Notes under the pieces: model-generated
Databases searched by the model: none
Told to the model about the DNA's origin: nothing
Seen by the model: only the letters and a program-made list of their open reading frames with translations
In this document: positions 17,546 through 43,110 of the stretch, in pieces
Numbering within the stretch: the stretch's first letter is position 1
How the letters are laid out: each line of letters starts with the position of its first letter
DNA from: Bacteroidales bacterium
Lineage (GTDB): Bacteria; Bacteroidota; Bacteroidia; Bacteroidales; VadinHA17
NCBI GenBank assembly: GCA_003141525.1
Contig: PLML01000159.1
Span: 1-43,110, forward strand
DNA: 43,110 bases
Direction: 5' to 3'
Position numbers and translations under genes: made by a program

Positions 17546-19750
17546 CTACATAAAAATGATAAAACCTGCCGTTTGATTGAGTTCCTTTTCATCGATTCGG
17601 ATAGTCAGTATCCCGTTTTTCCAGTCCCATTTCCTTGTAAGAACCAACTCCTGGTTGTTCACTTTTTCAATCTTTTCAGGTGCTGATGGTAGTTTGATAC
17701 TGATGAAACCTGCATCAAATGGAATTAAAGCCAACTGCCTGGCTTCAAAAATTCCATTACTGGTCTGAGAAACAACTGCCCATCTTCCCTCCCATTCAAA
17801 TGCATCAAGTTCTTTCAGAGTGTTATCCTTTTTCCCTTTTAATACAATGGCAGTTATTTGATCTTTGCCATCAATATTTTCGGTACGCCCCCAACAATTT
17901 AACCTGGGAGGTGATTGCATATTCCCAAGTTGGCTGTTGAGCCAAACAGGTTGCCATTCAATACTTTTCCGATACCATTTATTCACAGCATACCTTCTGT
18001 TTATGAATTTTTCAGGAACTTCAGAACCATCATCCATATGGGTCCCAAGCACAGCTCCCGGAGAACCTAATATGAATGTATTCAGGATAACTTCGTCGTC
18101 GGCATTCCAGTCATAAGAAGATGAACCACTTATTGCAACCTGTTTGTCAGACAACAATGAGGCCCATATACTCCACTGGTCGTGACCGTCTTTTACATCA
18201 TACCACAAATCGCCCTGATCATCCAGTGAAACCATATCGAACAGTGTCAGATACAGCGGGTTTATGCCGTAATACATAATGGTTACATCGGGATCGACAC
18301 TTTTTGCCGCATCTGAAATAAGTTTCATCAATTCGAAAGAATATTTTTCGCCCCTAAATTCAGGATTTCGAGGAACACCCAGGTTCGGGTTAGGCATGCC
18401 GTATCCAAAATCAAGTTTGATCAATTTGGGCTTCATCATCTTCATGGTCCGGATTGTTCGTTCGACCAGAAAGTCTCTGGAGCGCTGTGAACTAATGTCG
18501 ATACAGAAATTACCAGAGTTGAAAGGACTGAAAGTCCAGCTTCCAATACAGGGATTACCATTTTTATCGCAGATAAGATCAGCTCTTGTCAATCCACAGG
18601 TCATTGTATCAACAATCCACCCGACACATTCCCAAATACCATTTGACATTTTTTGCTGATGGAGGTATTTCATATCATCCTGAATATTGGGAAATTTCAC
18701 CGTATCAGGTGTCCCAACTCCTTGCGAAGCCTCCCATGGATCATCAATTACAAAGATTTCGGCCCCGGTTCTTTTGGCGAAATCTCCTATCGGTCGAATG
18801 GGATATTCTTGATGGCGCCAGTTACCCCATGTATTCCAGATTGCCTTTTGGTGAATGGAAGAAAGTGTTTCCTTTTTGGGAAAAGAATTGAAATACTGGT
18901 GGTAAGCCAACCATGCATTTTTTCCAAAAACAATGCGCAGGGGATTTTTCCAGATTCTATCATTAGTTCCCGCTCCCCACAAATCTTCGCGGTACAAAAA
19001 ATCGATGCAGCCAAGAAACGAGCGCATCTTCAAAGTCATTGGAGCATTGGGAATATTTCCTGCACCGATAATCATCCACCCATTATCGTCACCCATCGCC
19101 ACTGACAATATTGGCCGGGGGAAAGCAGCCCCGTAGGGGCTTCCCATGGATAGACCAAAACTGCCCAGAGCAACGTTGGCTTGCCCAAAATCCCAAAAGC
19201 GGAAGAAGCTTTGAACCGTTCCTTCCTTGGCACCCGGAATGCAAAAGCCAAAAGCTTCCCAATCGGATGAAAACGGCGGATTCGTGTCGTCCATCAAACT
19301 TTGCCTGCCTTTAGGACATGCCGATGTTCCAAAATACAAATCAATGATCTGTGGAATCTTATCGTTCCAGCTTATCCGAAAATCTGTTATCGAAATACCC
19401 CAGCTTTCTTTTCTTACCGACATGCTGCCTGTTCCATAATCGCCAAACTGAAGTTTTAATTTCGTCAGATTCCCTTCTGTCGTCTCGTTTAATACCACAG
19501 CCTTTATATACTTTTTTTGCATGTTTGAATTCTGAAGCCAGAAAGCAGGCAACAAACTTCCCTTCCAGATGGTCTTGGGTGGATTTATCTGAGACATCTG
19601 TGCTTTATCAGTTGCTAAATTCCATTCAAACTGATAATTTCCGTCCGTATATTTCCACGTTTTTACCAACTCATCATTTCCACTGAATGCTGAATTCATT
19701 GTAGCGAAAAAGAAAATGCAAAATGTCAGGGCTTTCATAATTTTTTTCAT
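17546..19750 (-). CDS. Clan GH-D alpha-galactosidase-like (GH27/GH36-related) secreted protein
   Basis: 734-aa ORF with signal peptide; FVIDDPWEASQGVG, KPKLIKLDFGYGMPNP (candidate nucleophile Asp), VSLDDQGDLWYD, WASLLSDKQVAISGSSSYDW. Confidence 0.75.
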   Translation of the reverse strand: MKKIMKALTFCIFFFATMNSAFSGNDELVKTWKYTDGNYQFEWNLATDKAQMSQINPPKTIWKGSLLPAFWLQNSNMQKKYIKAVVLNETTEGNLTKLKLQFGDYGTGSMSVRKESWGISITDFRISWNDKIPQIIDLYFGTSACPKGRQSLMDDTNPPFSSDWEAFGFCIPGAKEGTVQSFFRFWDFGQANVALGSFGLSMGSPYGAAFPRPILSVAMGDDNGWMIIGAGNIPNAPMTLKMRSFLGCIDFLYREDLWGAGTNDRIWKNPLRIVFGKNAWLAYHQYFNSFPKKETLSSIHQKAIWNTWGNWRHQEYPIRPIGDFAKRTGAEIFVIDDPWEASQGVGTPDTVKFPNIQDDMKYLHQQKMSNGIWECVGWIVDTMTCGLTRADLICDKNGNPCIGSWTFSPFNSGNFCIDISSQRSRDFLVERTIRTMKMMKPKLIKLDFGYGMPNPNLGVPRNPEFRGEKYSFELMKLISDAAKSVDPDVTIMYYGINPLYLTLFDMVSLDDQGDLWYDVKDGHDQWSIWASLLSDKQVAISGSSSYDWNADDEVILNTFILGSPGAVLGTHMDDGSEVPEKFINRRYAVNKWYRKSIEWQPVWLNSQLGNMQSPPRLNCWGRTENIDGKDQITAIVLKGKKDNTLKELDAFEWEGRWAVVSQTSNGIFEARQLALIPFDAGFISIKLPSAPEKIEKVNNQELVLTRKWDWKNGILTIRIDEKELNQTAGFIIFM

Positions 19751-27935: not shown

Positions 27936-29057
27936 TCAGTTTAGGTTTACTCCATATTTTCTTATCACTTCAGGGTTTAATTCTATACCTAGACCAGGCG
28001 TTGAAGGAACCTCAACGAATCCGTCTTTTTGTACGAAAGGTTTGACAAGTAATTCCTTTCTTATAGCTGATTCGGTAACAGAAAATTCCAGAAATGGGAT
28101 ATCTGGAATAGCTGCGATCAAGTGAATACTGGCTGCCAAAAGTATACCCGTTTTAAAGGCATGGGGAACCATTTGAATATTATTATCAGCCGCCATCGCA
28201 GCTATTTTCTTTGCCTCGGTAAGCCCGCCACAGCGAGAAATATCAGGTTGAATAACATCAACACGGGATTCATTTATCAATCTTGCAAAAGCCAGCCTGC
28301 CACTTTCTTCTTCCCCTGTAGCTATGCGAAGTGTAGTCGATTCTGTAAGTCTTTTGTACCCTGCATAATCCTCAGCTGGGAGAGGTTCTTCCAGCCAGTA
28401 GATGTTTATTTGCTCCAAAGCCTTTGCAACATACATTGCCTGCTTCAGTTTATACCGTTTACCAATATCAATCATAATTTCCATATGATCTCCTGCAGTT
28501 TTTCTGGCCATTTCAATGAGCTGCAGGTCAAAATTGATATCATATCCGAGAGGTCCCCATCCGAATTTTATTGCAGTGAATCCTAAAGAAGCATATTTCT
28601 CCACCATACGTCTGACTTCATCCGGGTTACCTGGCATCAGCGCACTTGCATATGGCCTTACTCTGTCAGAATAACTCCCACCCAACAGTTTATGTACCGG
28701 TTTTCCTGTAGCTTTTCCCATGATATCCCAAATGGCCATATCAATACCGCTCATTACATGAATTACAGGGCCACTACGTCCATAGTAGTACGTTTTCTTC
28801 CACATGTCGTTCCAAATCTGTTCATAATCAAACGGATCGGACCCCATAACAACTTCTCTTAAACCATAACAAGTTCCATGTGACATATATGCGTCAACTA
28901 TAGCTTTTCCAACGATTGGAGCAGTATCAACTTCACCATAACCTGTAATCCCTTCATCAGTTTCAACTATAATGATTAAATCGTCCTGAGTGCCATCTGC
29001 TGCCGTAGAAATCTCGGGCAGTTTTAGCATGATAGCTTTAACATTTGTAATCTTCAT
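27936..29057 (-). CDS. Enolase superfamily, mandelate racemase/muconate lactonizing enzyme family (sugar-acid dehydratase-like)
   Basis: 373-aa ORF; FTAIKFGWGP, YWLEEPLPAEDYAGYKRL, RIATGEEESG, DVIQPDISRCGGLTEAKKIA, VPHAFKTGI. Confidence 0.92.
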   Translation of the reverse strand: MKITNVKAIMLKLPEISTAADGTQDDLIIIVETDEGITGYGEVDTAPIVGKAIVDAYMSHGTCYGLREVVMGSDPFDYEQIWNDMWKKTYYYGRSGPVIHVMSGIDMAIWDIMGKATGKPVHKLLGGSYSDRVRPYASALMPGNPDEVRRMVEKYASLGFTAIKFGWGPLGYDINFDLQLIEMARKTAGDHMEIMIDIGKRYKLKQAMYVAKALEQINIYWLEEPLPAEDYAGYKRLTESTTLRIATGEEESGRLAFARLINESRVDVIQPDISRCGGLTEAKKIAAMAADNNIQMVPHAFKTGILLAASIHLIAAIPDIPFLEFSVTESAIRKELLVKPFVQKDGFVEVPSTPGLGIELNPEVIRKYGVNLN

Positions 29058-31571: not shown

Positions 31572-33458
31572 CTAATCGTATTTAACTGAAATATTATATG
31601 TAATACCCGGAGTAACAGTCACCACGGCATATTCAGATCCTTTTATTTTCCACCTTGCAAACTTCCTGATTTGTCCTTCAATTTCAATACTCTTGATTTT
31701 CAGATTGTCATGAACAACAGGCAGTAAAAATGTAAGTCCTGATGAATGCTTAAGGTTTGATGAAAGGTTAAATGTCAGCAGATGATCTGCCCATCTAAAT
31801 CCTGAAAAGGAAGCTTCATCTTTCATTTTCAGAAAATTAAGAAGTTTTAGTTCTGTCCAGACCGGGATGTTATTTTGTCTGGAGTAGGTTAACATCTTCA
31901 TTAAAGGCGATTTGGAAAAGTAATACTCATCGTTATGAGACTTCACACTTATAAATGAATACACTTCATTTTGCAGGCTCCTATCCATCAAGCCTTTAAA
32001 GCAGTTGAAAAATCCTTCAGGATCATGACTTTCGTTATATTCCTGATCGTATATTGCATTCAATTGTTGATAGACATTTATTGTTTTCCCTCTGCTGTCG
32101 GCAAATTTCATTACCAGTCCGCTTCCTGTAAAATTGCCCTGGTTTGTTCCCAGTGGTCCGAGATAATGTTCTCCCTGATTAGATTTCATATCATAATGGG
32201 CATAATTTATGTCCAGTTCGATTCCGTTCTTTTCTTCGAGATTTGCCTCTGCTCCAAATTCCTGTTTACCGTCAGCATTCTTTCCGCACCATACAAACCA
32301 GTGATTGACATTGGTACGCATAGGCAGTCCATAATTAGAGGCTATTTCACTTTTCCTTACTCTAAGCGCACTGTCCATCCTGTTCCATGTTGGATCTGCT
32401 GCTTCTTTTGTATCATCAGGATGTCCTGCTATTTCAAATCCTTTAGCGGTCCATTTATCAACCCAGGCTTTAGATACCTTATCAACTCCTAAAATATAAA
32501 GTGACATTTTCCCACCTAATGAATCAACATCCCGGAATTGTGGCTCAAAATCTCTTTCGCTTTTATACTCTCCATCATTTGTAAGTGTTACCAGACATTT
32601 CAAAGTATCAGGAAAATACCAGAAACGTGGCATTGGCATTTTATCTTCAATGAGGTTTTCAATGCAATGCGACAATAGCGCTATTTGCACATCGGCCTGA
32701 TTTATCTTGCTGTTTGAAGTATCGACCCAGCCATCAGTAAACAGATCCATGCTCCTCAGGCCAAGAATACCGTCCTTTTCCATACCTGCGAAAATGGGAT
32801 TTCCCTGCCTGGTCAGGACAATACTCCGGGGCAGGTTGTAAAGGAAAGCAACCGTTTGCCCTTTCTCGTAATTATTGCTGACAACAGCCGGATATCTTTC
32901 CTCTGAATTCTTACAAACCAACAGGTCAGCCAGAGACATGGCTCCGTTAAGAGTATAATAATCAGCTTCCCCATGAAATTGCAATAGAGCGGAAGGTAAA
33001 TCTTTACCTTGTTCCTGAGTAGTATCGATGTGGATATAACCCGATGAAATAGTTTTACCTGCAGGCTTGACGCCGAATAGTTCTGCAAAACGGAGATCGG
33101 TATGTATAGCGATCAGTTTTCCACCGTTTTTTACATATTCCTTTACCATATTGAGTCCGGTACTACTGATATTTGCCTCAGTCATGATTATCAGGTTAAA
33201 TTCTTCAAGATATGCTGTTGTAACATTTTCGTCGGTAAGGGAATCGACTACAAACTCATTAAATCCCTCTGTTTTAAGAATTTCTGCGATATAGTTGCCA
33301 AAATCAGAATCTGTCGATAATACTAGGACAGGCAGAACAGCCTTTTTAGGAGTGCAACTTATCAAACCAAAAAGTATGATTAAGAATACAGTGTTTGTGA
33401 GATACTTTTTCAATTTTTCAGATTTAAATGATATTTCAGTTTGTATTCTATGCATCAC
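31572..33458 (-). CDS. Lipoprotein with polysaccharide-deacetylase-like domain (divergent)
   Basis: 628-aa ORF; lipobox LISCTPKK; N-terminal ThuA/GATase-like VLVLSTDSDFGNYIAEIL...LIAIHTDLRFAELFG; central LVTLTNDGEYKSE...KGFEIAGHPDDTKE. Listed start is GTG in TAGTGATG; ATG at 33455 also possible. Confidence 0.6.
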   Translation of the reverse strand: MMHRIQTEISFKSEKLKKYLTNTVFLIILFGLISCTPKKAVLPVLVLSTDSDFGNYIAEILKTEGFNEFVVDSLTDENVTTAYLEEFNLIIMTEANISSTGLNMVKEYVKNGGKLIAIHTDLRFAELFGVKPAGKTISSGYIHIDTTQEQGKDLPSALLQFHGEADYYTLNGAMSLADLLVCKNSEERYPAVVSNNYEKGQTVAFLYNLPRSIVLTRQGNPIFAGMEKDGILGLRSMDLFTDGWVDTSNSKINQADVQIALLSHCIENLIEDKMPMPRFWYFPDTLKCLVTLTNDGEYKSERDFEPQFRDVDSLGGKMSLYILGVDKVSKAWVDKWTAKGFEIAGHPDDTKEAADPTWNRMDSALRVRKSEIASNYGLPMRTNVNHWFVWCGKNADGKQEFGAEANLEEKNGIELDINYAHYDMKSNQGEHYLGPLGTNQGNFTGSGLVMKFADSRGKTINVYQQLNAIYDQEYNESHDPEGFFNCFKGLMDRSLQNEVYSFISVKSHNDEYYFSKSPLMKMLTYSRQNNIPVWTELKLLNFLKMKDEASFSGFRWADHLLTFNLSSNLKHSSGLTFLLPVVHDNLKIKSIEIEGQIRKFARWKIKGSEYAVVTVTPGITYNISVKYD

Positions 33459-36181
33459 TACCGTTTTATTTTGTCAGCATCCATGGCTATCTCTTCATAA
33501 ATAGCCCGTGCCTGAAGATATCTGTTCTGAACAGCATCCAGATCATGTGTAAAAAATTTGTTCCATGGTCCACCTGGAGAAGTGTTAGCTATGGTCTTGT
33601 TGATCCAGGTTATGAAATATCTGGCATCCTCAGCACTTGCCCTTACAGGAGCTTTGCCCAGAGTAATGTATACAGGAGCGGTATGTGACCTGTGGCCGGT
33701 ATCATCCATTCTGCGGGCGCATATCCAACTGCTCTCCTGTATTGGCACTCTTGCTTTAAGAATTATAGGTTCTCCAGGTTTGGACGTGCCTTTCTGTGTT
33801 GCAATCACTTTGCCGTTCAGAACAAGTTCTATTCTGCCAGTCTGTTCCGATATTGATGTCCATTTGACTTCAACACCAACCGTTGCTTTGTCTTTTAATT
33901 TAATCTCATCACCCGGCGTTGCAGTTCCATTTATTTTAAGGTCCAGAAATTCCTGGTGTCCGTTTGTTGTCACTACCGTTCTGCCATTCTTAATACCTTC
34001 TATCCATTGTGTATATGTGAAGGGCTTATTTTTTACCTGAACATAGGTTAATAAAGAGCCAAAAGGCTCACTGTTATTACATGGAAAATCTGTTCCTGCC
34101 GCCCATCCAAGCCTGAATCCGCAATTCAACAACCTGTAATAAGCACTGACCGATGCATCATTTAACCATACATCTTCTGCCAGGAAATCAATTGTACCCA
34201 GGGCTGCTTCTACCGGAAAATCAATTGGGGTACAGCAATCAAGTGTAGCAGGTATGGAATCTTTAAGATATTGCATGTGGCAGAAACCCATAATGGCGTT
34301 TTGTTTTTTACCCCATTCCAGGATTTTATAAGGTGATTCATCCCATATCGTATTAGCTTCTTTTAGTCCCAGTAATACCAGATGTCCTCCAAGGGCTTTG
34401 TTCTCAAAAGTGGTACCGGCGGGGTCAAAATGCCACTCAGCATCATAATGGACTATTCTGCCTGGGATGGATTGAACAGCATCGGTCCCGTTTACTTTGG
34501 GCAGGTCAGTTTTACTGTCTTTCACTTCACCGTCTCCCATATCAGCCAGGACTGATATAACAGCAAGGTCATTAGGTTCCATCATTTTCGTGAATTCACT
34601 TTCTGCCAGTATTGTGGTTCCTTCTCCACAATTACGGTGGACGTGCATATCACCGGCATACCAGTCATCAGGTTCGGGCTTACTACCTGAAACATCAACA
34701 TGGGAAGAATCTGCAAAACCGATCAGGGTAAAAATACAGTTTGGCGGAAGAATCACATTCATAATATTATTCTTCAGAATTATGTTACCACCTTTATGAA
34801 AGTTCAGTACAGGGCTTGTACAAACCATCTCCAAACTATTTATAGCCGGCAGATTGTCAAGCATTCCATTGATGTTTATAGTATCCCTTCCTTTATTGTG
34901 ACCTACAATAACCAATTGCCCATCCGGATTAATAAAAGAACTAACAACCAGATTGCTGTCGTTAACTGTTGAGCCAACTCGTATTGCTCCGGGTTTTACA
35001 AACCTGAAGAGCTGGGCAAATTCATAGAATTGCTTCCTTGGTGTCCAGCTTCTTTTTGACGGTATATATTCGAGCATTGGCTTGCCCTCTTCAGGTAGCC
35101 AAAAGACCCAGTCATTAGGAGGAGTATCGCCATAGCCATTCCGCCTGGCATGCTGGTAAACGCAGTCAAATCCATCCCAAAAAATATAAGCTTTGGCATT
35201 ATCATCGAGCAGGCCAAGCATATTCCCTATACCGGCTGTTTCGGTTACCCAGAATGATTTGTTTGGATTCTCCGGCTTACTGATAATGTTTCTATAACTT
35301 TTTGCATTGTTGCCGTATACATGTACGCCCCAGCAGGCGAGCTTGCCCATCAGATATGAGTCCTTGACCATTTCGTCAAGACACAATGCGAATAAATGAT
35401 CACCCGCTGCGTCAGGAGCTATGAAACGGATGTCGCTCATGCCAATGGCATCGAGCTTTTTTGCCAGTTTTTTAATTACCCTGACAAACTGGACAGCGTC
35501 AGGCATATTCGGACCTTCAACTATTCCATCAGGATGACTAGCACCTTTGCTTCCAGATATTACATCTGTTTCATTCATAGGTGAGACCAATGTGAATTGA
35601 ACCTTAGCAGTATGTCGTGCATAATAGAGCAGTGCTGCTATTGACTCGACGAATTCGTCTTCCATTGCAGGGCTGATGGTGTAATCGGTACCACCCATCC
35701 AACTTCTTTTTGGGTTTTTTGCAGCCAGGGGGGCAGCAGCCGGTGGTGCGCCCATAAAACTGATAATTAGTCCGTCTGTTATTCCCTTTTGATTCAGATA
35801 TCGTAGAGTATTCCATACGCCCTGAAATCTTGCGTTTGAAAATACGCGGTTGTAATAAGTCCAGTTAAAAGTGTCAGGGTCGTTATTATCATTGACCTCT
35901 TCCCAATCGATCTCTTCGATTACGGCACGGAATATGGTGACACCTAGTGAATCAATAAGCCGGTCAATAGCCGATTGCACAACCGTAGCATCACCATACT
36001 TACCGTCATACCACCATGCAGTGTTTATATTTATGCCGAAACCATCCATTTGCTGGAACTTCTGAGTACCATCGATTTGTAAGTGTACTGAAGATTTGTT
36101 TACAATATTCTGAGAATAGGATTGCTTGTAAAAAAATAATTGAATTACCAGTAATGTCAGGAATAACGGATATCTTTTCAT
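33458..36181 (-). CDS. GH30-like glycoside hydrolase fused to CehA/McbA-type PHP metallohydrolase domain
   Basis: 907-aa ORF with signal peptide; GH30-like QMDGFGININ, LVSPMNETD, FWVTETAG; then DDWYAGDMHVHRNCGEGT (HxH), GFCHMQYL, WAAGTDFPCNN and IKNGRTVVTTNGHQEFLDLKINGTATPGDEI as in CehA/McbA family. Confidence 0.85.
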   Translation of the reverse strand: MKRYPLFLTLLVIQLFFYKQSYSQNIVNKSSVHLQIDGTQKFQQMDGFGININTAWWYDGKYGDATVVQSAIDRLIDSLGVTIFRAVIEEIDWEEVNDNNDPDTFNWTYYNRVFSNARFQGVWNTLRYLNQKGITDGLIISFMGAPPAAAPLAAKNPKRSWMGGTDYTISPAMEDEFVESIAALLYYARHTAKVQFTLVSPMNETDVISGSKGASHPDGIVEGPNMPDAVQFVRVIKKLAKKLDAIGMSDIRFIAPDAAGDHLFALCLDEMVKDSYLMGKLACWGVHVYGNNAKSYRNIISKPENPNKSFWVTETAGIGNMLGLLDDNAKAYIFWDGFDCVYQHARRNGYGDTPPNDWVFWLPEEGKPMLEYIPSKRSWTPRKQFYEFAQLFRFVKPGAIRVGSTVNDSNLVVSSFINPDGQLVIVGHNKGRDTININGMLDNLPAINSLEMVCTSPVLNFHKGGNIILKNNIMNVILPPNCIFTLIGFADSSHVDVSGSKPEPDDWYAGDMHVHRNCGEGTTILAESEFTKMMEPNDLAVISVLADMGDGEVKDSKTDLPKVNGTDAVQSIPGRIVHYDAEWHFDPAGTTFENKALGGHLVLLGLKEANTIWDESPYKILEWGKKQNAIMGFCHMQYLKDSIPATLDCCTPIDFPVEAALGTIDFLAEDVWLNDASVSAYYRLLNCGFRLGWAAGTDFPCNNSEPFGSLLTYVQVKNKPFTYTQWIEGIKNGRTVVTTNGHQEFLDLKINGTATPGDEIKLKDKATVGVEVKWTSISEQTGRIELVLNGKVIATQKGTSKPGEPIILKARVPIQESSWICARRMDDTGHRSHTAPVYITLGKAPVRASAEDARYFITWINKTIANTSPGGPWNKFFTHDLDAVQNRYLQARAIYEEIAMDADKIKR

Positions 36182-36193
36182 GATTTTATTAAA

Positions 36194-37136
36194 TTATAAA
36201 GAGTTTTTAATGAATATGCTATTGGGAGGTTTTATGATCTTCTGTTCCCACAAAAGCAGGAATGCCCCTAATATAGCAAGGACAATGCCCGTAATTGGAA
36301 CCAGATAAATTCTCTCTTTTAAGGAAAATAAGCGCCAAAACGACGGTGAATACCTGTTGCAGCGTACCACCAATTGAACTTACCTTTGAGGCCTTGCCTT
36401 TAGCACGGTAAGCTGAATAAATAGCCAGAACGCCCAAACCATCAAGGAACCCTGCCGCTGATCCGAACCATAATGTTTTTTGTGGAAAATTAAAATCGAT
36501 CAGACCAAAGACAATAAAGCAAACCGAAACCAAAACAGAAGATATTACAAAACTTAAATAGGACCAACCGGTTGATAGATATCTGGAAATTACTTTTTGT
36601 AAAGCGCTGAATAATCCGAATAAGAGTAACGATAAAAATGCAAAAAGAAACCATACTTTCAATCCAGTCGTTTGAAAAATATGTAGCGGGTCATTGAATA
36701 TCTGAGATTGGCCTGACAGAAGAAGGATAGCAGGCATAATAATCAAGATCCCTAAATAATTGATCCAGTTCAGCTTTTCCTTAAAAATCAAAAGTGCTAT
36801 GATAATTGTTACCATTGGGTAAAGATTAGTAAAAGGTATCACCATAGCAGCCTGTCCTCCCATTTTAAATGACTGGTAAATGGATACATTGCCAAGCACG
36901 ACAAGTATGCTTGCGCCTATCCCTCCGGAAATAGCTTTTATGCTCACTTCCTCTATTTTGCAGCTTCGAATAACTAAAGGCAAAGTAAATAAAGCACCTA
37001 TTGTAAACATGAGATGAGTTATAAAAGGACTGACATCAATGGAAATAAACTTAGTTAATACACCCCATATTCCCCAACAAAACGCTGCAAGAATTGTATA
37101 TACAAGCCAAATCCTTTCTTTTAAATACTTAATCAT
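36194..37136 (-). CDS. DMT superfamily (EamA) transporter with apparent C-terminal frameshift
   Basis: ORF track gives 36219..37136; removing one T from the T4 run at 36317-36320 restores ALIFLKERIYLVPITGIVLAILGAFLLLWEQKIIKPPNSIFIKNSL* ending at 36194. Confidence 0.85.
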
Positions 37137-37253: not shown

Positions 37254-38660
37254 TTATTTACTATTTCCTGCAAGGGTAAAGACACAAAAGGCAGGAATCA
37301 TTTTAGAGAAAGTCTGATGGCTAACTGTTACATCGGGACCCCTTTTAAAATTATGTGAAGCATCCGTAAAATAGTACTTTAATGTCGATACTCCTGCAAG
37401 ATTCTTTAAGATGCCCTCAATTGTCTGATTACTTCCACTATCGTTTTTCCCGGTTATTACAATATCCCTATTTACCGGATTATAGAATGCAGAAACCGTC
37501 ATATTCTGAAGGTTCGTGGAAATATCAATCCTTTGGAAACCTGGTTTGACAAAATTATACAGCTGTTTAAATACATAGAAATGGGGCCGTTTTGTATACA
37601 CATCCGGACGAAGTGTGTCATTTATCGCAAAGATTCCCCACATACTCCAGGTCAGATACCGGTTGGGATGATGATAACGGCTATCATAGCCTTCCCAGAG
37701 CTGAATTCCATTGACACCAACATTCAGATGCTGAAGTATATCTTTATATGCCAGACCTGCATATTTAATAAACCCATAATCCGGATTATATATTCCACCA
37801 TCACATTTAAATCCATTGCATACTTCGTTTGCTTCTGTCATTATCACTCCTTTGTCTGGGTAAGTGGAATTCTTTATTGAATCCAGAAGGCCCTGACTCG
37901 TTGAAGTACTATTTCCATATTGGTGCCCACCAAAGAATTTTAGTTTTGACATGGTGGTACTGTTTGATATCATAGCATGAAAACTTGAGGGCCAACCGCC
38001 ACAATCATCTGGTCCGATAAGTGTGACATTGGTAATGCCGTCGCTGATAAGATGGGTTGCGATATTACTAAAAATGGCACCTAGTTGATTTGGAGACATA
38101 ACAGGAGCTTCACTTCCCCCACAGGTCGTCTCATTTATTGGTGACAGCATACTGAATTGAATGGCTGGACTCCGGCGTTTTTGCCCATAATAAACCATTG
38201 AAGCCATCATTTCTGCATATTCCGCCTCTGCTCCTTGATTAAGCTTTGTTCCACCCATCCATCCTGAAGCTGCACCATCGGGACTAAGGGTAATGTCGCT
38301 GATACCTTTGCTGTTTAAATACTCTATCGTATTCCAAACACATGTAAATCGTGGAGCGCTATAGATGGAATCGTAGTAAGTCCAGTTGTATGAATTGGGA
38401 TCGTTGTTATCATTGACTACTTCCCAATCGCAATCATCAAACATGAGTCGAAAGCTAGTGCATCCCATTCCAGTGATCAGGCTGTCTATAACTTCTTTAA
38501 CTGCTGCGGGATTCACGTTCCATGATTGAGGATTGATATTTACCCCAAGACCGTGAATGGTTTGGTATTTCTTAGCACCATCGATTGTAATATTTTGAGC
38601 AGTCACTGCATTCTCAAACGCGAATAGTACTATACAAACTGCAAATAAAAAATTTCTCAT
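37254..38660 (-). CDS. GH30-like glycoside hydrolase, secreted
   Basis: 468-aa ORF with signal peptide; TIHGLGVNINPQ, MLSPINETTCGG, GVIMTEANEVC; clear paralogue of the N-terminal half of the 907-aa protein (DCDWEVVNDNNDPNSYNWTYYDSIYSAPRFTCVWNTIEYLNSKGI). Confidence 0.88.
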   Translation of the reverse strand: MRNFLFAVCIVLFAFENAVTAQNITIDGAKKYQTIHGLGVNINPQSWNVNPAAVKEVIDSLITGMGCTSFRLMFDDCDWEVVNDNNDPNSYNWTYYDSIYSAPRFTCVWNTIEYLNSKGISDITLSPDGAASGWMGGTKLNQGAEAEYAEMMASMVYYGQKRRSPAIQFSMLSPINETTCGGSEAPVMSPNQLGAIFSNIATHLISDGITNVTLIGPDDCGGWPSSFHAMISNSTTMSKLKFFGGHQYGNSTSTSQGLLDSIKNSTYPDKGVIMTEANEVCNGFKCDGGIYNPDYGFIKYAGLAYKDILQHLNVGVNGIQLWEGYDSRYHHPNRYLTWSMWGIFAINDTLRPDVYTKRPHFYVFKQLYNFVKPGFQRIDISTNLQNMTVSAFYNPVNRDIVITGKNDSGSNQTIEGILKNLAGVSTLKYYFTDASHNFKRGPDVTVSHQTFSKMIPAFCVFTLAGNSK

Positions 38661-38740
38661 GTTGTCTCCTTTCTTAATAAATTTAATTACTGGATTATAC
38701 TTGGTTTTTTAATGTAGATATTGAAATCGTAACCTTAAAG
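38572..38740. repeat. 169-bp direct repeat, copy 1 (intact gene junction)
   Basis: Aligns without gaps to 40436-40604, 12 mismatches counted by eye (about 93% identity). Confidence 0.9.
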
Positions 38741-40368
38741 CCAGCTTTGTGTCTGATGGTTACGGCATAATCTCCATTTCCGAGGTTTTTCAGAGTATAA
38801 CCCTCTTTATCTAAATTAGTAAGTAATGGTAATTTGGATCCGTTTACTGTGATAACTGTCGGTTTAAAAGCCAAACGTAAGTATTCTGGTCCGATATTAT
38901 TTGTTGCAGTGTACCTTACCTGATTAGTTGCGTATGATACATTTTTGAGAATGCTTTCTGAATAAAGTATATGATTTTCTGCCGGTGGAGCCCACTCGGG
39001 AACAGCTGCAAAAACCTGGTAAAACATTCTGGGACATTCACCATAACAGTCTGACCACCAGTTTAAAATACCTTTGCTCACAGGACTTTCAAAAGCCATT
39101 CCAATGGAATCGTTGCAATAGGTAACCCAGTTCAATGAATGATAAGCCTTTTCCTTGTACGATTCATCTCCCGAAACCGCATACCATCTTGCGCATTCAG
39201 CTGCGTACCGTGCTGTTTGATAATCCATTTTATAGTTAAAGCTATCCTGCTCACCAACAATGTTGGCTCCCCACATAGTCGAAGGTTCTCCAGGTGATGT
39301 ACGAAAAATAAAATATTCCTCGGTCCATTTGATCAACTTAGGGATATCTGATTTCCAGTCCGGGTCGAGATCATGGTAATCAAAAAGGCACAAAGTAGTA
39401 TTGCTGGCACTCATGTTGCTTTTATAAGTATTGCTTTTTACATCAGTATCCGTATGACCGTCAGTCCAATATCCGGTTTTCATGGGATATTGAAGTATGA
39501 AATCTCTGGCTTTATCTCGGGCATCTCTATAAGCTTTCACATTCCCAATATTTGCTTTTATTAAATTGTCCAAAAGAATATAACAGCCTGTCCAGTTGGC
39601 TCCATAAGGTGCGGTTATCCTACCATCATCCATAATAACCCTATAGGGCCATACTGACTGGTCCTTATTTCCTATCCGGGCATTTTTTGCCAAAACATTG
39701 GCAACATCAAGGGCAGCAGAAAGATACTTTTTTTCACCTGTGTAAAGATACATTCTGTAGTAAGTCAAACCCATATCACCAGCATGGTCCACCTGTATTT
39801 CATTCAATACCAGCCTACCTTGATTTGTAAATCCACGAAATAAAGTGTCTCCAGCATTAGTAGTTGTATAAGGGAAATTTGGCCAGGCAAATTTCGGAGA
39901 ACTAGTCCCATGTAACAAGGTGTAATCAACAAAATCTCTGATTATCTTCATCACAACCGTATCTCCCGTGTAGGCATAATAAAGACGTGCGGATTCAAAC
40001 CAATTTGGAATTTTTTCGCCAATATCATTCATCCAGGTATCCGGTTCTAATACTCCATTACTATCTTTATAAGCACAATAGAAGTAATACTGCGGATAAT
40101 TTGATCTGGGAGAAGGACCTTGACTATTGGGCACCCGCGTCTTAATAAAGTTCCAGCGCTGGTGAAGAAATTGATCAAAAGCTTTGGACTGAGGTGTTAT
40201 CCAGGAAATAATTTTCGAATCTTTGTCTAATACGACTTTATGGGTATTATCCTGAAATCTGATTTTACTTAACGAATCTGCAAGATCCCTTTCCTTATTT
40301 GTAATTGTTTGTCCAAAATCAAATGTTGTGATGAAAATTGCAAGAACAATAAAGATTATTTTCTTCAT
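38695..40368 (-). CDS. Secreted alpha/alpha-barrel (six-hairpin-like) protein, putative glycosidase
   Basis: 557-aa ORF with signal peptide; helical-toroid-type repeats (WFESARLYYAYTGDTVVMKIIRDFVDYTL, TYYRMYLYTGEKKYLSAALDVANVLA, ARYAAECARWYAVSGDESYKEKAYHSLNWV). Family not assigned. Confidence 0.65.
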   Translation of the reverse strand: MKKIIFIVLAIFITTFDFGQTITNKERDLADSLSKIRFQDNTHKVVLDKDSKIISWITPQSKAFDQFLHQRWNFIKTRVPNSQGPSPRSNYPQYYFYCAYKDSNGVLEPDTWMNDIGEKIPNWFESARLYYAYTGDTVVMKIIRDFVDYTLLHGTSSPKFAWPNFPYTTTNAGDTLFRGFTNQGRLVLNEIQVDHAGDMGLTYYRMYLYTGEKKYLSAALDVANVLAKNARIGNKDQSVWPYRVIMDDGRITAPYGANWTGCYILLDNLIKANIGNVKAYRDARDKARDFILQYPMKTGYWTDGHTDTDVKSNTYKSNMSASNTTLCLFDYHDLDPDWKSDIPKLIKWTEEYFIFRTSPGEPSTMWGANIVGEQDSFNYKMDYQTARYAAECARWYAVSGDESYKEKAYHSLNWVTYCNDSIGMAFESPVSKGILNWWSDCYGECPRMFYQVFAAVPEWAPPAENHILYSESILKNVSYATNQVRYTATNNIGPEYLRLAFKPTVITVNGSKLPLLTNLDKEGYTLKNLGNGDYAVTIRHKAGFKVTISISTLKNQV

Positions 40369-41320: not shown

Positions 41321-43110
41321 TTATTTACTTTTTTGTATAGTTGAATATCGTCTTTGATAAAGCCCTTTTGCCATTTCTCTCGACGCGTTTATCATATCGG
41401 CATGGGGAACATCACAAATACTAATGAAACCACAGTTGAAATTTTCGCCATCCCCGCGTCCTAGAGTAGGCTGATCATAATATTGAAAAAAATGTGAGCC
41501 AACAACGAAGGGATTGTCAATACAACTTCCCAGGTAATATTCGAATTTCCACGTGCGCATCTGCATGCTTTCGTTAAAATCTTCCGCGTTGGAAAAGAAC
41601 GCGGCTTTGTTTATAGGGGTATGGTGCCATTCACTGCAAATAACAGGCTTATCAAAATCGCCGGGGTGTAAATCTGCTACCGTGCTGCTATATTTATTAA
41701 AACTTACCACATCACAATATTGTGCGGCAATATTTACTACCCAGTTGTTCCTGAAATCCCAGGCATTGAGGTTTTTTTCTGAAGGATACCAATGAAAATC
41801 GAAACGGCAACCTAAGTAAAGCTTATTGGGGGCCAATTTTTTTAAAGCACCGCTTACCTTCATAAAATATTCGTTTACCATCAATACAGTGAACTCTTTG
41901 GTATCTCCGTTTCTTATGTTGAGCTGCTTTTTGTTGTTCATGAAATCATCCCAGGAAGCGAATTGGGTATTCCATTTGGCGTTGAGGGCGCTAACATTTT
42001 TATATTTCTTTTTCAAAAAATCAAGCATAACAATTTTGGCCGGCTGATCGGCAGAGGATGCCATTGTCCAGTTTGCCACATCGGTAGTATCGCCCCACGT
42101 GGTTTCGTTATCTGCAAAATAGCCAATGCAATACGGATCAGTTATTGATTTTTCTAAAGACTTAACATTTCTTGTAAGCGATGCAATAAAGCTGGTATCA
42201 AAAGGGTCGGAATATTTAGCCCAGTGGCCCTCGCTTCCTTCAATTTTCCTGGCCTTGATAGAAAGGATAGGGGCATAAGAGACAGTACTTTTCATATAAA
42301 TATCGCGAGAAGACCATGCGCCCATAGTATTAAACCCCCAGCTACCGAGCCGTCTTGGGGCAAGACCTGATACCGTTTCTTTCCAGTTATCGCCATATTT
42401 GAGTTGCATATTCCATCCTAATACATCGAATGAACGCGAACGTCTGTCTTTGTAATAACCAAAAGGGGCTGAACGCATATTTCCGTAAAACTGTTTGTAC
42501 TTATTTGAATCGGGAAGGTCTGTAAAATAAAACTCGCGATCGGTTATAGGTGTGTAATCCCCCATTCTAACACAAGTTATGCCATTCGACCAGAATAACC
42601 TGCCATCCGGATCGACTAACCACCATTTTCCGTTTACCTTTTCAGTGCGAAAACTGCCTGTTGCCTTTAACATCGGGCCTTTGAGCCAGCCGCCATATTT
42701 GTCCCATTCAGCAGGAGCCGGGTGGCTTTTTAGATCGGCCTCTTCAGTTTTGACCGATTGTTTTAATTCATCTAAATTGTGTATCTTTTCACGCCAGTCG
42801 GCATGGGTATATTGGTCATATTCGTCAACCAGGGGGAAGAAACCTTTTTCAATCTCTTTTTCGGTTGGAAACTTCACATTTCCCTCGCCCCGTATATTTG
42901 CAATGCGAATGGTAGCTGGCAATGATGGGCAGATTATCACGAATGAAATTTTACGCATCGAGTCGGTACTATTAAAACCTAGTGAAGTAGGGTCAGTTTT
43001 TATGATTCCATCGGGAAGGTTGTACATTCCTATTATCTTTTTTAGATAGTATTCCGGAACGCTGTCACGAGGAATGACAACACATATTGTTTTTGTTTTT
43101 CCGGCAGGGA
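41321..43110 (-). CDS. Beta-agarase-like (GH50-like) glycoside hydrolase, partial; 5' end beyond window
   Basis: ORF continues open to the window edge (...PAGKTKTICVVIPRDSVPEYYLKKIIGMYNLPDGI...); WWLVDPDGRLFWSNGITCVRMGDYTPI, GYFADNETTWG, VICSEWH. Confidence 0.75.
   Translation of the reverse strand, partial: PAGKTKTICVVIPRDSVPEYYLKKIIGMYNLPDGIIKTDPTSLGFNSTDSMRKISFVIICPSLPATIRIANIRGEGNVKFPTEKEIEKGFFPLVDEYDQYTHADWREKIHNLDELKQSVKTEEADLKSHPAPAEWDKYGGWLKGPMLKATGSFRTEKVNGKWWLVDPDGRLFWSNGITCVRMGDYTPITDREFYFTDLPDSNKYKQFYGNMRSAPFGYYKDRRSRSFDVLGWNMQLKYGDNWKETVSGLAPRRLGSWGFNTMGAWSSRDIYMKSTVSYAPILSIKARKIEGSEGHWAKYSDPFDTSFIASLTRNVKSLEKSITDPYCIGYFADNETTWGDTTDVANWTMASSADQPAKIVMLDFLKKKYKNVSALNAKWNTQFASWDDFMNNKKQLNIRNGDTKEFTVLMVNEYFMKVSGALKKLAPNKLYLGCRFDFHWYPSEKNLNAWDFRNNWVVNIAAQYCDVVSFNKYSSTVADLHPGDFDKPVICSEWHHTPINKAAFFSNAEDFNESMQMRTWKFEYYLGSCIDNPFVVGSHFFQYYDQPTLGRGDGENFNCGFISICDVPHADMINASREMAKGLYQRRYSTIQKSK

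What the first reader, a model, noticed from the sequence alone, without database searches (positions are those of the whole stretch)
33458..36181. GH30-like glycosidase fused to a CehA/McbA-type PHP metallohydrolase
One uninterrupted 907-aa secreted ORF carries both an apparently complete GH30-like catalytic domain (acid/base SPMNETD, nucleophile WVTETAG) and a PHP-type domain with HxH (GDMHVHRN), internal His (GFCHMQ) and AGTD motifs. Known CehA/McbA proteins include carbamate/ester hydrolases and others tentatively linked to phosphoester chemistry. The fusion suggests one polypeptide that both cuts a glycosidic bond and removes a substituent (ester, carbamate or phosphoryl). I do not know of a described enzyme with this architecture.
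Basis: partly seen in the sequence, partly recalled or inferred. Interest (0 to 1): 0.72.

Follow-up and report, generated by a model that had tools for sequence, protein, structure and literature searches.

The report
Sugar-cutting enzyme fused to CehA-type hydrolase
A bacterial gene encodes one secreted protein that joins a sugar-chain-cutting domain to a metal-dependent hydrolase domain related to pesticide-degrading carbamate hydrolases; the join recurs in nine genomes of two phyla, so it is real and probably shows what this orphan hydrolase family does in nature, but the substrate is untested.

Summary
The fusion is real. It lies on the minus strand: 907 aa, one frame. Residues ~30-490 are a divergent GH30 enzyme (barrel plus beta-sandwich); 506-907 are a complete CehA/McbA unit (PHP domain, Ig-like sandwich, helical tail). 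Both active sites look intact by sequence: E204/E314, and H513, H515, E582, H600, H635, D698. H600 and H635 align with His453 and His495 of carbofuran hydrolase CehA, reported as important for activity. The fusion is not an assembly error: eight other genomes, including two from a Calditrichota class, carry it with every motif that is covered conserved. In one, the GH30 half has been exchanged for the neighbouring paralogue exactly at the domain boundary. In another, a third gene (the window's 557-aa ORF) is fused in front. The next gene is usually a ThuA-like protein; here its start overlaps the fusion's stop. Best reading: a secreted two-activity saccharide-degrading enzyme whose CehA half removes a substituent, most likely an ester. 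The bond is inferred, not shown. I found no described GH30-CehA enzyme, but glycosidase-esterase fusions are a known kind.

The parts
33458..36181 (-). GH30-CehA fusion gene, 907 aa plus stop
36110..36181 (-). signal-peptide-like N-terminus (residues 1-24, MKRYPLFLTLLVIQLFFYKQSYSQ)
   Evidence: by eye; no signal predictor available
34706..36100 (-). divergent GH30 module (TIM barrel plus beta-sandwich); acid/base E204 (codon 35570-35572), nucleophile E314 (codon 35240-35242)
33461..34666 (-). CehA/McbA unit: PHP-fold metallohydrolase, Ig-like sandwich, helical C-terminal tail; H513, H515, E582, H600, H635, D698
31572..33458 (-). partner gene, 628 aa, lipoprotein-like N-terminus, weak ThuA-like N-terminal domain and an unassigned conserved C-terminal domain; its start overlaps the fusion's stop by 1 base (TAGTG)
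36219..37136 (-). EamA/DMT-family transporter; also next to the GH30 gene in L009
37254..38660 (-). stand-alone GH30 paralogue (36% identical to the fusion's GH30); its orthologue is the GH30 half of the fusion in L036
38695..40368 (-). 557-aa ORF, unassigned family (only a sub-threshold GH127-like Pfam hint); its homologue is fused to the front of GH30-CehA in L052
26812..31569 (-). rest of the co-directional run: RraA-like aldolase, SDR, second EamA transporter, enolase-superfamily dehydratase, M24 metallopeptidase-family hydrolase; gaps of 2-43 bases

Best explanation
A secreted two-activity saccharide-degrading enzyme. The GH30 half cuts a beta-glycosidic bond by the retaining mechanism of clan A enzymes (acid/base E204, nucleophile E314). 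The CehA half is a divalent-metal-dependent hydrolase (H513, H515, E582, H600, H635, D698) that removes a substituent from the same glycan or released oligosaccharide, most likely an O-acyl or aryl ester. Having both on one chain lets the second act on the first's substrate or product at once. SHOWN by computation: fusion, both folds, conserved catalytic residues, recurrence in nine genomes, module swap, triple fusion, overlapping partner gene. INFERRED: catalytic activity of each half, ester as the bond, shared substrate, secretion.
For: Domain models and cutoffs; folds. Six metal-site residues invariant from the fusions to distant CehA proteins, and H600/H635 align with CehA His453/His495, reported as important for carbofuran hydrolysis in PMC8292978. 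GH30 catalytic pair invariant in nine GH30 modules. Fusion in eight other genomes, all covered motifs conserved. L036 swapped the GH30 half but kept it fused to CehA. L052 fuses a third ORF of the same operon in front. Surrounding genes are glycosidases and sugar-acid-type catabolic enzymes. Closest named enzymes, CehA and McbA, cleave the ester bond of carbamates.
Against: No substrate or activity measured. The choice of bond rests on relatives only 24-25% identical. L009 has the GH30 module without CehA, and solo GH30 paralogues exist, so the GH30 half can work apart. The GH30 acid/base motif is NET rather than the usual NEP (from memory) and lay outside the PDB sequence alignments. The full-length model has pTM 0.54, so the arrangement of the halves is not known.
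Confidence: 0.5

Rival explanations
1. Same two-headed enzyme, but the CehA half cleaves a phosphodiester or phosphomonoester on a phosphorylated glycan, as many PHP-fold proteins do.
For: PHP fold; nearest solved structures are TM0559, annotated as a predicted phosphoesterase, and the RNase AM PHP domain.
Against: Sequence places it in the CehA/McbA family, whose studied members hydrolyse carbamate esters; no phosphate-handling gene seen in the operon.
Confidence: 0.15
2. The CehA half hydrolyses a carbamate or amide group (for example a carbamoylated or aminoacylated sugar) rather than a simple ester; the M24 hydrolase and EamA transporters of the operon then handle the nitrogen-containing product.
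For: CehA/McbA chemistry; M24 creatinase/prolidase-family gene and EamA transporters in the same run.
Against: L034 and L035 carry the fusion and the ThuA-like partner without M24 or EamA genes nearby, so those are not part of the core.
Confidence: 0.15
3. The CehA half is catalytically idle and serves as a scaffold or saccharide-binding module for the GH30 half.
For: PHP domains have lost activity in some other families (general knowledge); an Ig-like sandwich is present.
Against: All six metal-site residues are invariant in every covered fusion and in distant relatives, which is not expected for an idle domain.
Confidence: 0.1
4. Chimeric assembly or frameshift artefact.
For: The source is a fragmented assembly (241 contigs).
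Against: Same fusion in eight other assemblies at 57-67% identity.
Confidence: 0.01

Closest known systems
CehA/McbA family metallohydrolases (NCBIfam NF038032; carbofuran/carbaryl hydrolases CehA of Sphingobium sp. CFD-1 and McbA of Pseudomonas sp. XWY-1)
   Same: C-terminal unit of the same family; HxH, E, GH, H, D all aligned
   Different: N-terminal partner is a GH30; CehA, McbA and the Bacteroidota relatives sampled have other N-terminal parts (beta-propellers in many, unassigned in others); 24-25% identity
GH30 xylanases (XynC, GH30_8; AcXbh30A, GH30_10) and endo-beta-1,6-glucanase BT3312
   Same: Barrel plus C-terminal sandwich; nucleophile motif aligned
   Different: About 15-19% identity in the structural alignments, far below the NCBIfam equivalog cutoffs (42 bits vs 650), fused to CehA; subfamily and substrate unassigned
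Glycosidase-carbohydrate esterase fusions (for example Clocl_1543, GH10 with CE1, and Clocl_3361, GH11 with CE4, in PMC12037645)
   Same: One polypeptide with a glycosidase and a deacylating domain
   Different: Esterase parts there are CE1 or CE4; none is a PHP/CehA metallohydrolase

Membership tests
CehA/McbA family (NF038032) | Score above the curated cutoff | tested here: met
   157.6 bits vs 80; other fusions 127-161
CehA/McbA family (NF038032) | Conserved metal-site residues HxH, E, GH, H, D | tested here: met
   Invariant in alignment; H600/H635 match CehA His453/His495. The review's His313/His315 are E/L in the deposited CehA; its HxH is at 351/353, probably a numbering slip
CehA/McbA family (NF038032) | PHP fold | tested here: met
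   Model pLDDT 88.7, pTM 0.92; best PDB match TM0559 PHP
CehA/McbA family (NF038032) | Metal-dependent ester/carbamate hydrolysis | not testable with these tools
   needs assay
Glycoside hydrolase family 30 | TIM barrel plus C-terminal beta-sandwich of GH30 type | tested here: met
   PF17189 above cutoff; Foldseek top hits all GH30
Glycoside hydrolase family 30 | Pfam GH30 barrel model above cutoff | tested here: not met
   Barrel not reported; best was 13.5 bits vs 27 in L006: divergent member or GH30-like
Glycoside hydrolase family 30 | Two catalytic Glu after beta-4 and on beta-7 | tested here: inconclusive
   E204 follows predicted strand 198-203 and E314 lies in strand 310-315, both invariant; E314 aligns with the WMTE nucleophile motif of XynC; E204 not covered by the PDB sequence alignments; geometry not measured
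Known GH30 subfamilies represented by XynC and BT3312 | Equivalog-level score | tested here: not met
   42 bits vs 650 (XynC), 40 vs 700 (BT3312)
Canonical PHP phosphoesterase | Phosphoester hydrolysis | not testable with these tools
   needs assay

The most novel reading that the evidence does not exclude
The fusions reveal the natural role of a large, poorly understood branch of CehA/McbA metallohydrolases: metal-dependent carbohydrate esterases (a new CE-type family) working with a new GH30 subfamily, from which carbamate-pesticide hydrolases would be side branches.
Probability: 0.3. Interest if true: 0.7.

Novelty: new variant of a known kind. Interest (0 to 1): 0.52.

Why it matters
CehA/McbA proteins are named after man-made pesticides, and I found no solved structure for them by sequence. 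A conserved fusion to a glycosidase, a natural GH30 swap and a triple fusion point to carbohydrates as the natural substrate and make that testable: express the two halves and screen acylated and aryl-ester saccharides. If right, it defines a new carbohydrate-esterase type and a new GH30 subgroup.

Tried and rejected
Assembly artefact: rejected, eight other genomes carry the fusion. Chance motif match: rejected by profile scores and folds. Other CehA proteins in Bacteroidota also fused to glycosidases: none seen among the CehA proteins found in a sample of 398 genomes of the phylum. Virus or phage carriage: none found. Solved CehA structure by sequence: none. Reading the partner's C-terminal half as a CE4-type deacetylase: motifs NDGE and GHPD suggested it by eye, but no Pfam or PDB support, so dropped. 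Identity of the 557-aa ORF: no PDB match, NCBIfam nothing useful. Agar as the substrate because of the GH50 gene nearby: kept only as a lead, since L034 and L035 carry the fusion and partner without it.

Full report
OBSERVATION. The ORF lies on the minus strand, 36181 to 33458, 907 aa, uninterrupted. NCBIfam assigns residues 507-839 to CehA/McbA metallohydrolases (157.6 bits, cutoff 80). Pfam finds the GH30 C-terminal sandwich at 398-438; phmmer finds GH30 xylanases over 247-487. The GH30 barrel is too divergent for Pfam's barrel models, but the AlphaFold2 model (pLDDT 78.2, pTM 0.54) matches GH30 enzymes, best AcXbh30A, E 2.6e-25. The C-terminal unit folded alone (pLDDT 88.7, pTM 0.92) matches PHP proteins, best TM0559 (E 3.9e-7); its PHP part is followed by an Ig-like sandwich and a helical tail.

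ACTIVE SITES. In CehA, six residues are invariant between the fusions and divergent Bacteroidota relatives: H513, H515, E582, H600, H635, D698. Carbofuran hydrolase CehA of Sphingobium sp. CFD-1 was fetched from its plasmid and aligned; its His453 and His495 correspond to H600 and H635. A review (PMC8292978) reports four important histidines, 313, 315, 453 and 495; in the deposited sequence 453 and 495 are His, but the HxH motif is at 351/353 and positions 313/315 are not His, so I treat those two numbers as a slip. In GH30, the Asn-Glu pair at E204 and the Thr-Glu pair at E314 are invariant in nine modules. E314 aligns with the WMTE motif of XynC. E204 is placed only by the motif and by its position after a predicted strand.

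RECURRENCE. Fusions occur in L006 (record titled Calditrichaeota; 950 aa), L007 (Saprospiraceae, contig end), L008 (Bacteroidales, 5' contig end and a gap), L034, L035, L036, L037 (contig end) and L052 (same class as the L006 genome), all with the covered motifs conserved. With the window this makes nine genomes. The fusion is rare and patchy: in an evenly drawn sample of 395 genomes of the class, only the window's genome matched at E 1e-20, and 8 of 117 genomes of the family matched at E 1e-30, one of them (G821, L009) with the GH30 half alone and one (G802) with the solo paralogue only. Sampled CehA proteins of the phylum carry beta-propellers or unassigned N-terminal regions, no glycosidase.

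TWO NATURAL EXPERIMENTS. (a) L036: the GH30 half is 84% identical to the window's stand-alone GH30 (37254-38660) while the CehA half is 83% identical to the window's CehA; the identity switches at the domain boundary. Trees agree: GH30 of L036 groups with the solo paralogues (support 1.0), its CehA with the window's (0.999). The simplest reading is a deletion between tandem GH30 genes that removed the EamA gene and fused the other GH30 to CehA; the direction is inferred. (b) L052: a 1209-aa ORF, cut by the contig end, whose first 350 residues are 71% identical to the window's 557-aa ORF (38695-40368), followed by GH30 and CehA. In L006 the same two genes are adjacent but separate. Both support a functional tie.

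NEIGHBOURHOOD. Ten genes from 40368 down to 26812 run in one direction with gaps of at most 117 bases; the fusion's stop overlaps the next gene's start (TAGTG). That next gene, 628 aa, follows the fusion in L008, L034, L035 and L036. In the genus, 5 of 62 genomes have it, four of them shared with the fusion; the fifth, G802, has it at a contig edge. L037 lacks it directly downstream. The rest of the run (RraA-like, SDR, EamA, enolase superfamily, M24) suggests catabolism of a sugar acid (inference). The window also holds a GH50 agarase-like gene at 41321-43027 and a large set of glycosidases.

MECHANISM. Shown by computation: architecture, folds, conserved residues, recurrence, swap, triple fusion. 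Inferred: GH30 cuts a beta-glycosidic bond; CehA hydrolyses a substituent on the same material, most likely an ester (family precedent: CehA and McbA cleave the ester bond of carbamates). Phosphoester, carbamate/amide and idle-domain rivals are listed with their tests.

NOVELTY. Full-text searches for GH30 or glycoside hydrolase with CehA or PHP fusions returned nothing relevant; the library is open-access only, and I could not query CAZy or InterPro. Glycosidase-esterase fusions exist, so I call this a new variant of a known kind.

Noticed in passing
window 41321-43027 (-): GH50 beta-agarase-like ORF (E 4.7e-77 to 5z6p), its residues 168-561 matching the C-terminal ~400 residues of 765-aa agarases; near the contig end.
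   Followed up: partly
window 88-24619: Dense glycosidase cluster: GH2 (several), GH16, GH92, GH89, GH51, rhamnosidase-like, melibiase-like hint at 17546-19750, plus an arabinose/fucose-isomerase-like gene.
   Followed up: partly
L052:7835-11461 (-): Triple fusion: homologue of the 557-aa ORF + GH30 + CehA in one frame; the 557-aa family has no assigned function.
   Followed up: partly
L036:6166-8844 (+): Natural exchange of the GH30 module at the domain boundary of the fusion.
   Followed up: yes
window 31572-33458 (-): Highly conserved 620-aa ThuA-like partner with an unassigned C-terminal domain (motifs TNDGE, GHPD, NHWFVWCG, KSHNDEYYF).
   Followed up: partly
L044 (CehA, NZ_CP084404.1): His313/His315 quoted in PMC8292978 are E/L in the deposited CehA sequence; the HxH motif is at 351/353.
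   Followed up: yes
window 27936-29057 (-): Enolase-superfamily protein, best PDB matches 3sjn (1.8e-90) and galactonate dehydratase 5olc (3.5e-62); possible sugar-acid dehydratase or cycloisomerase.
   Followed up: partly
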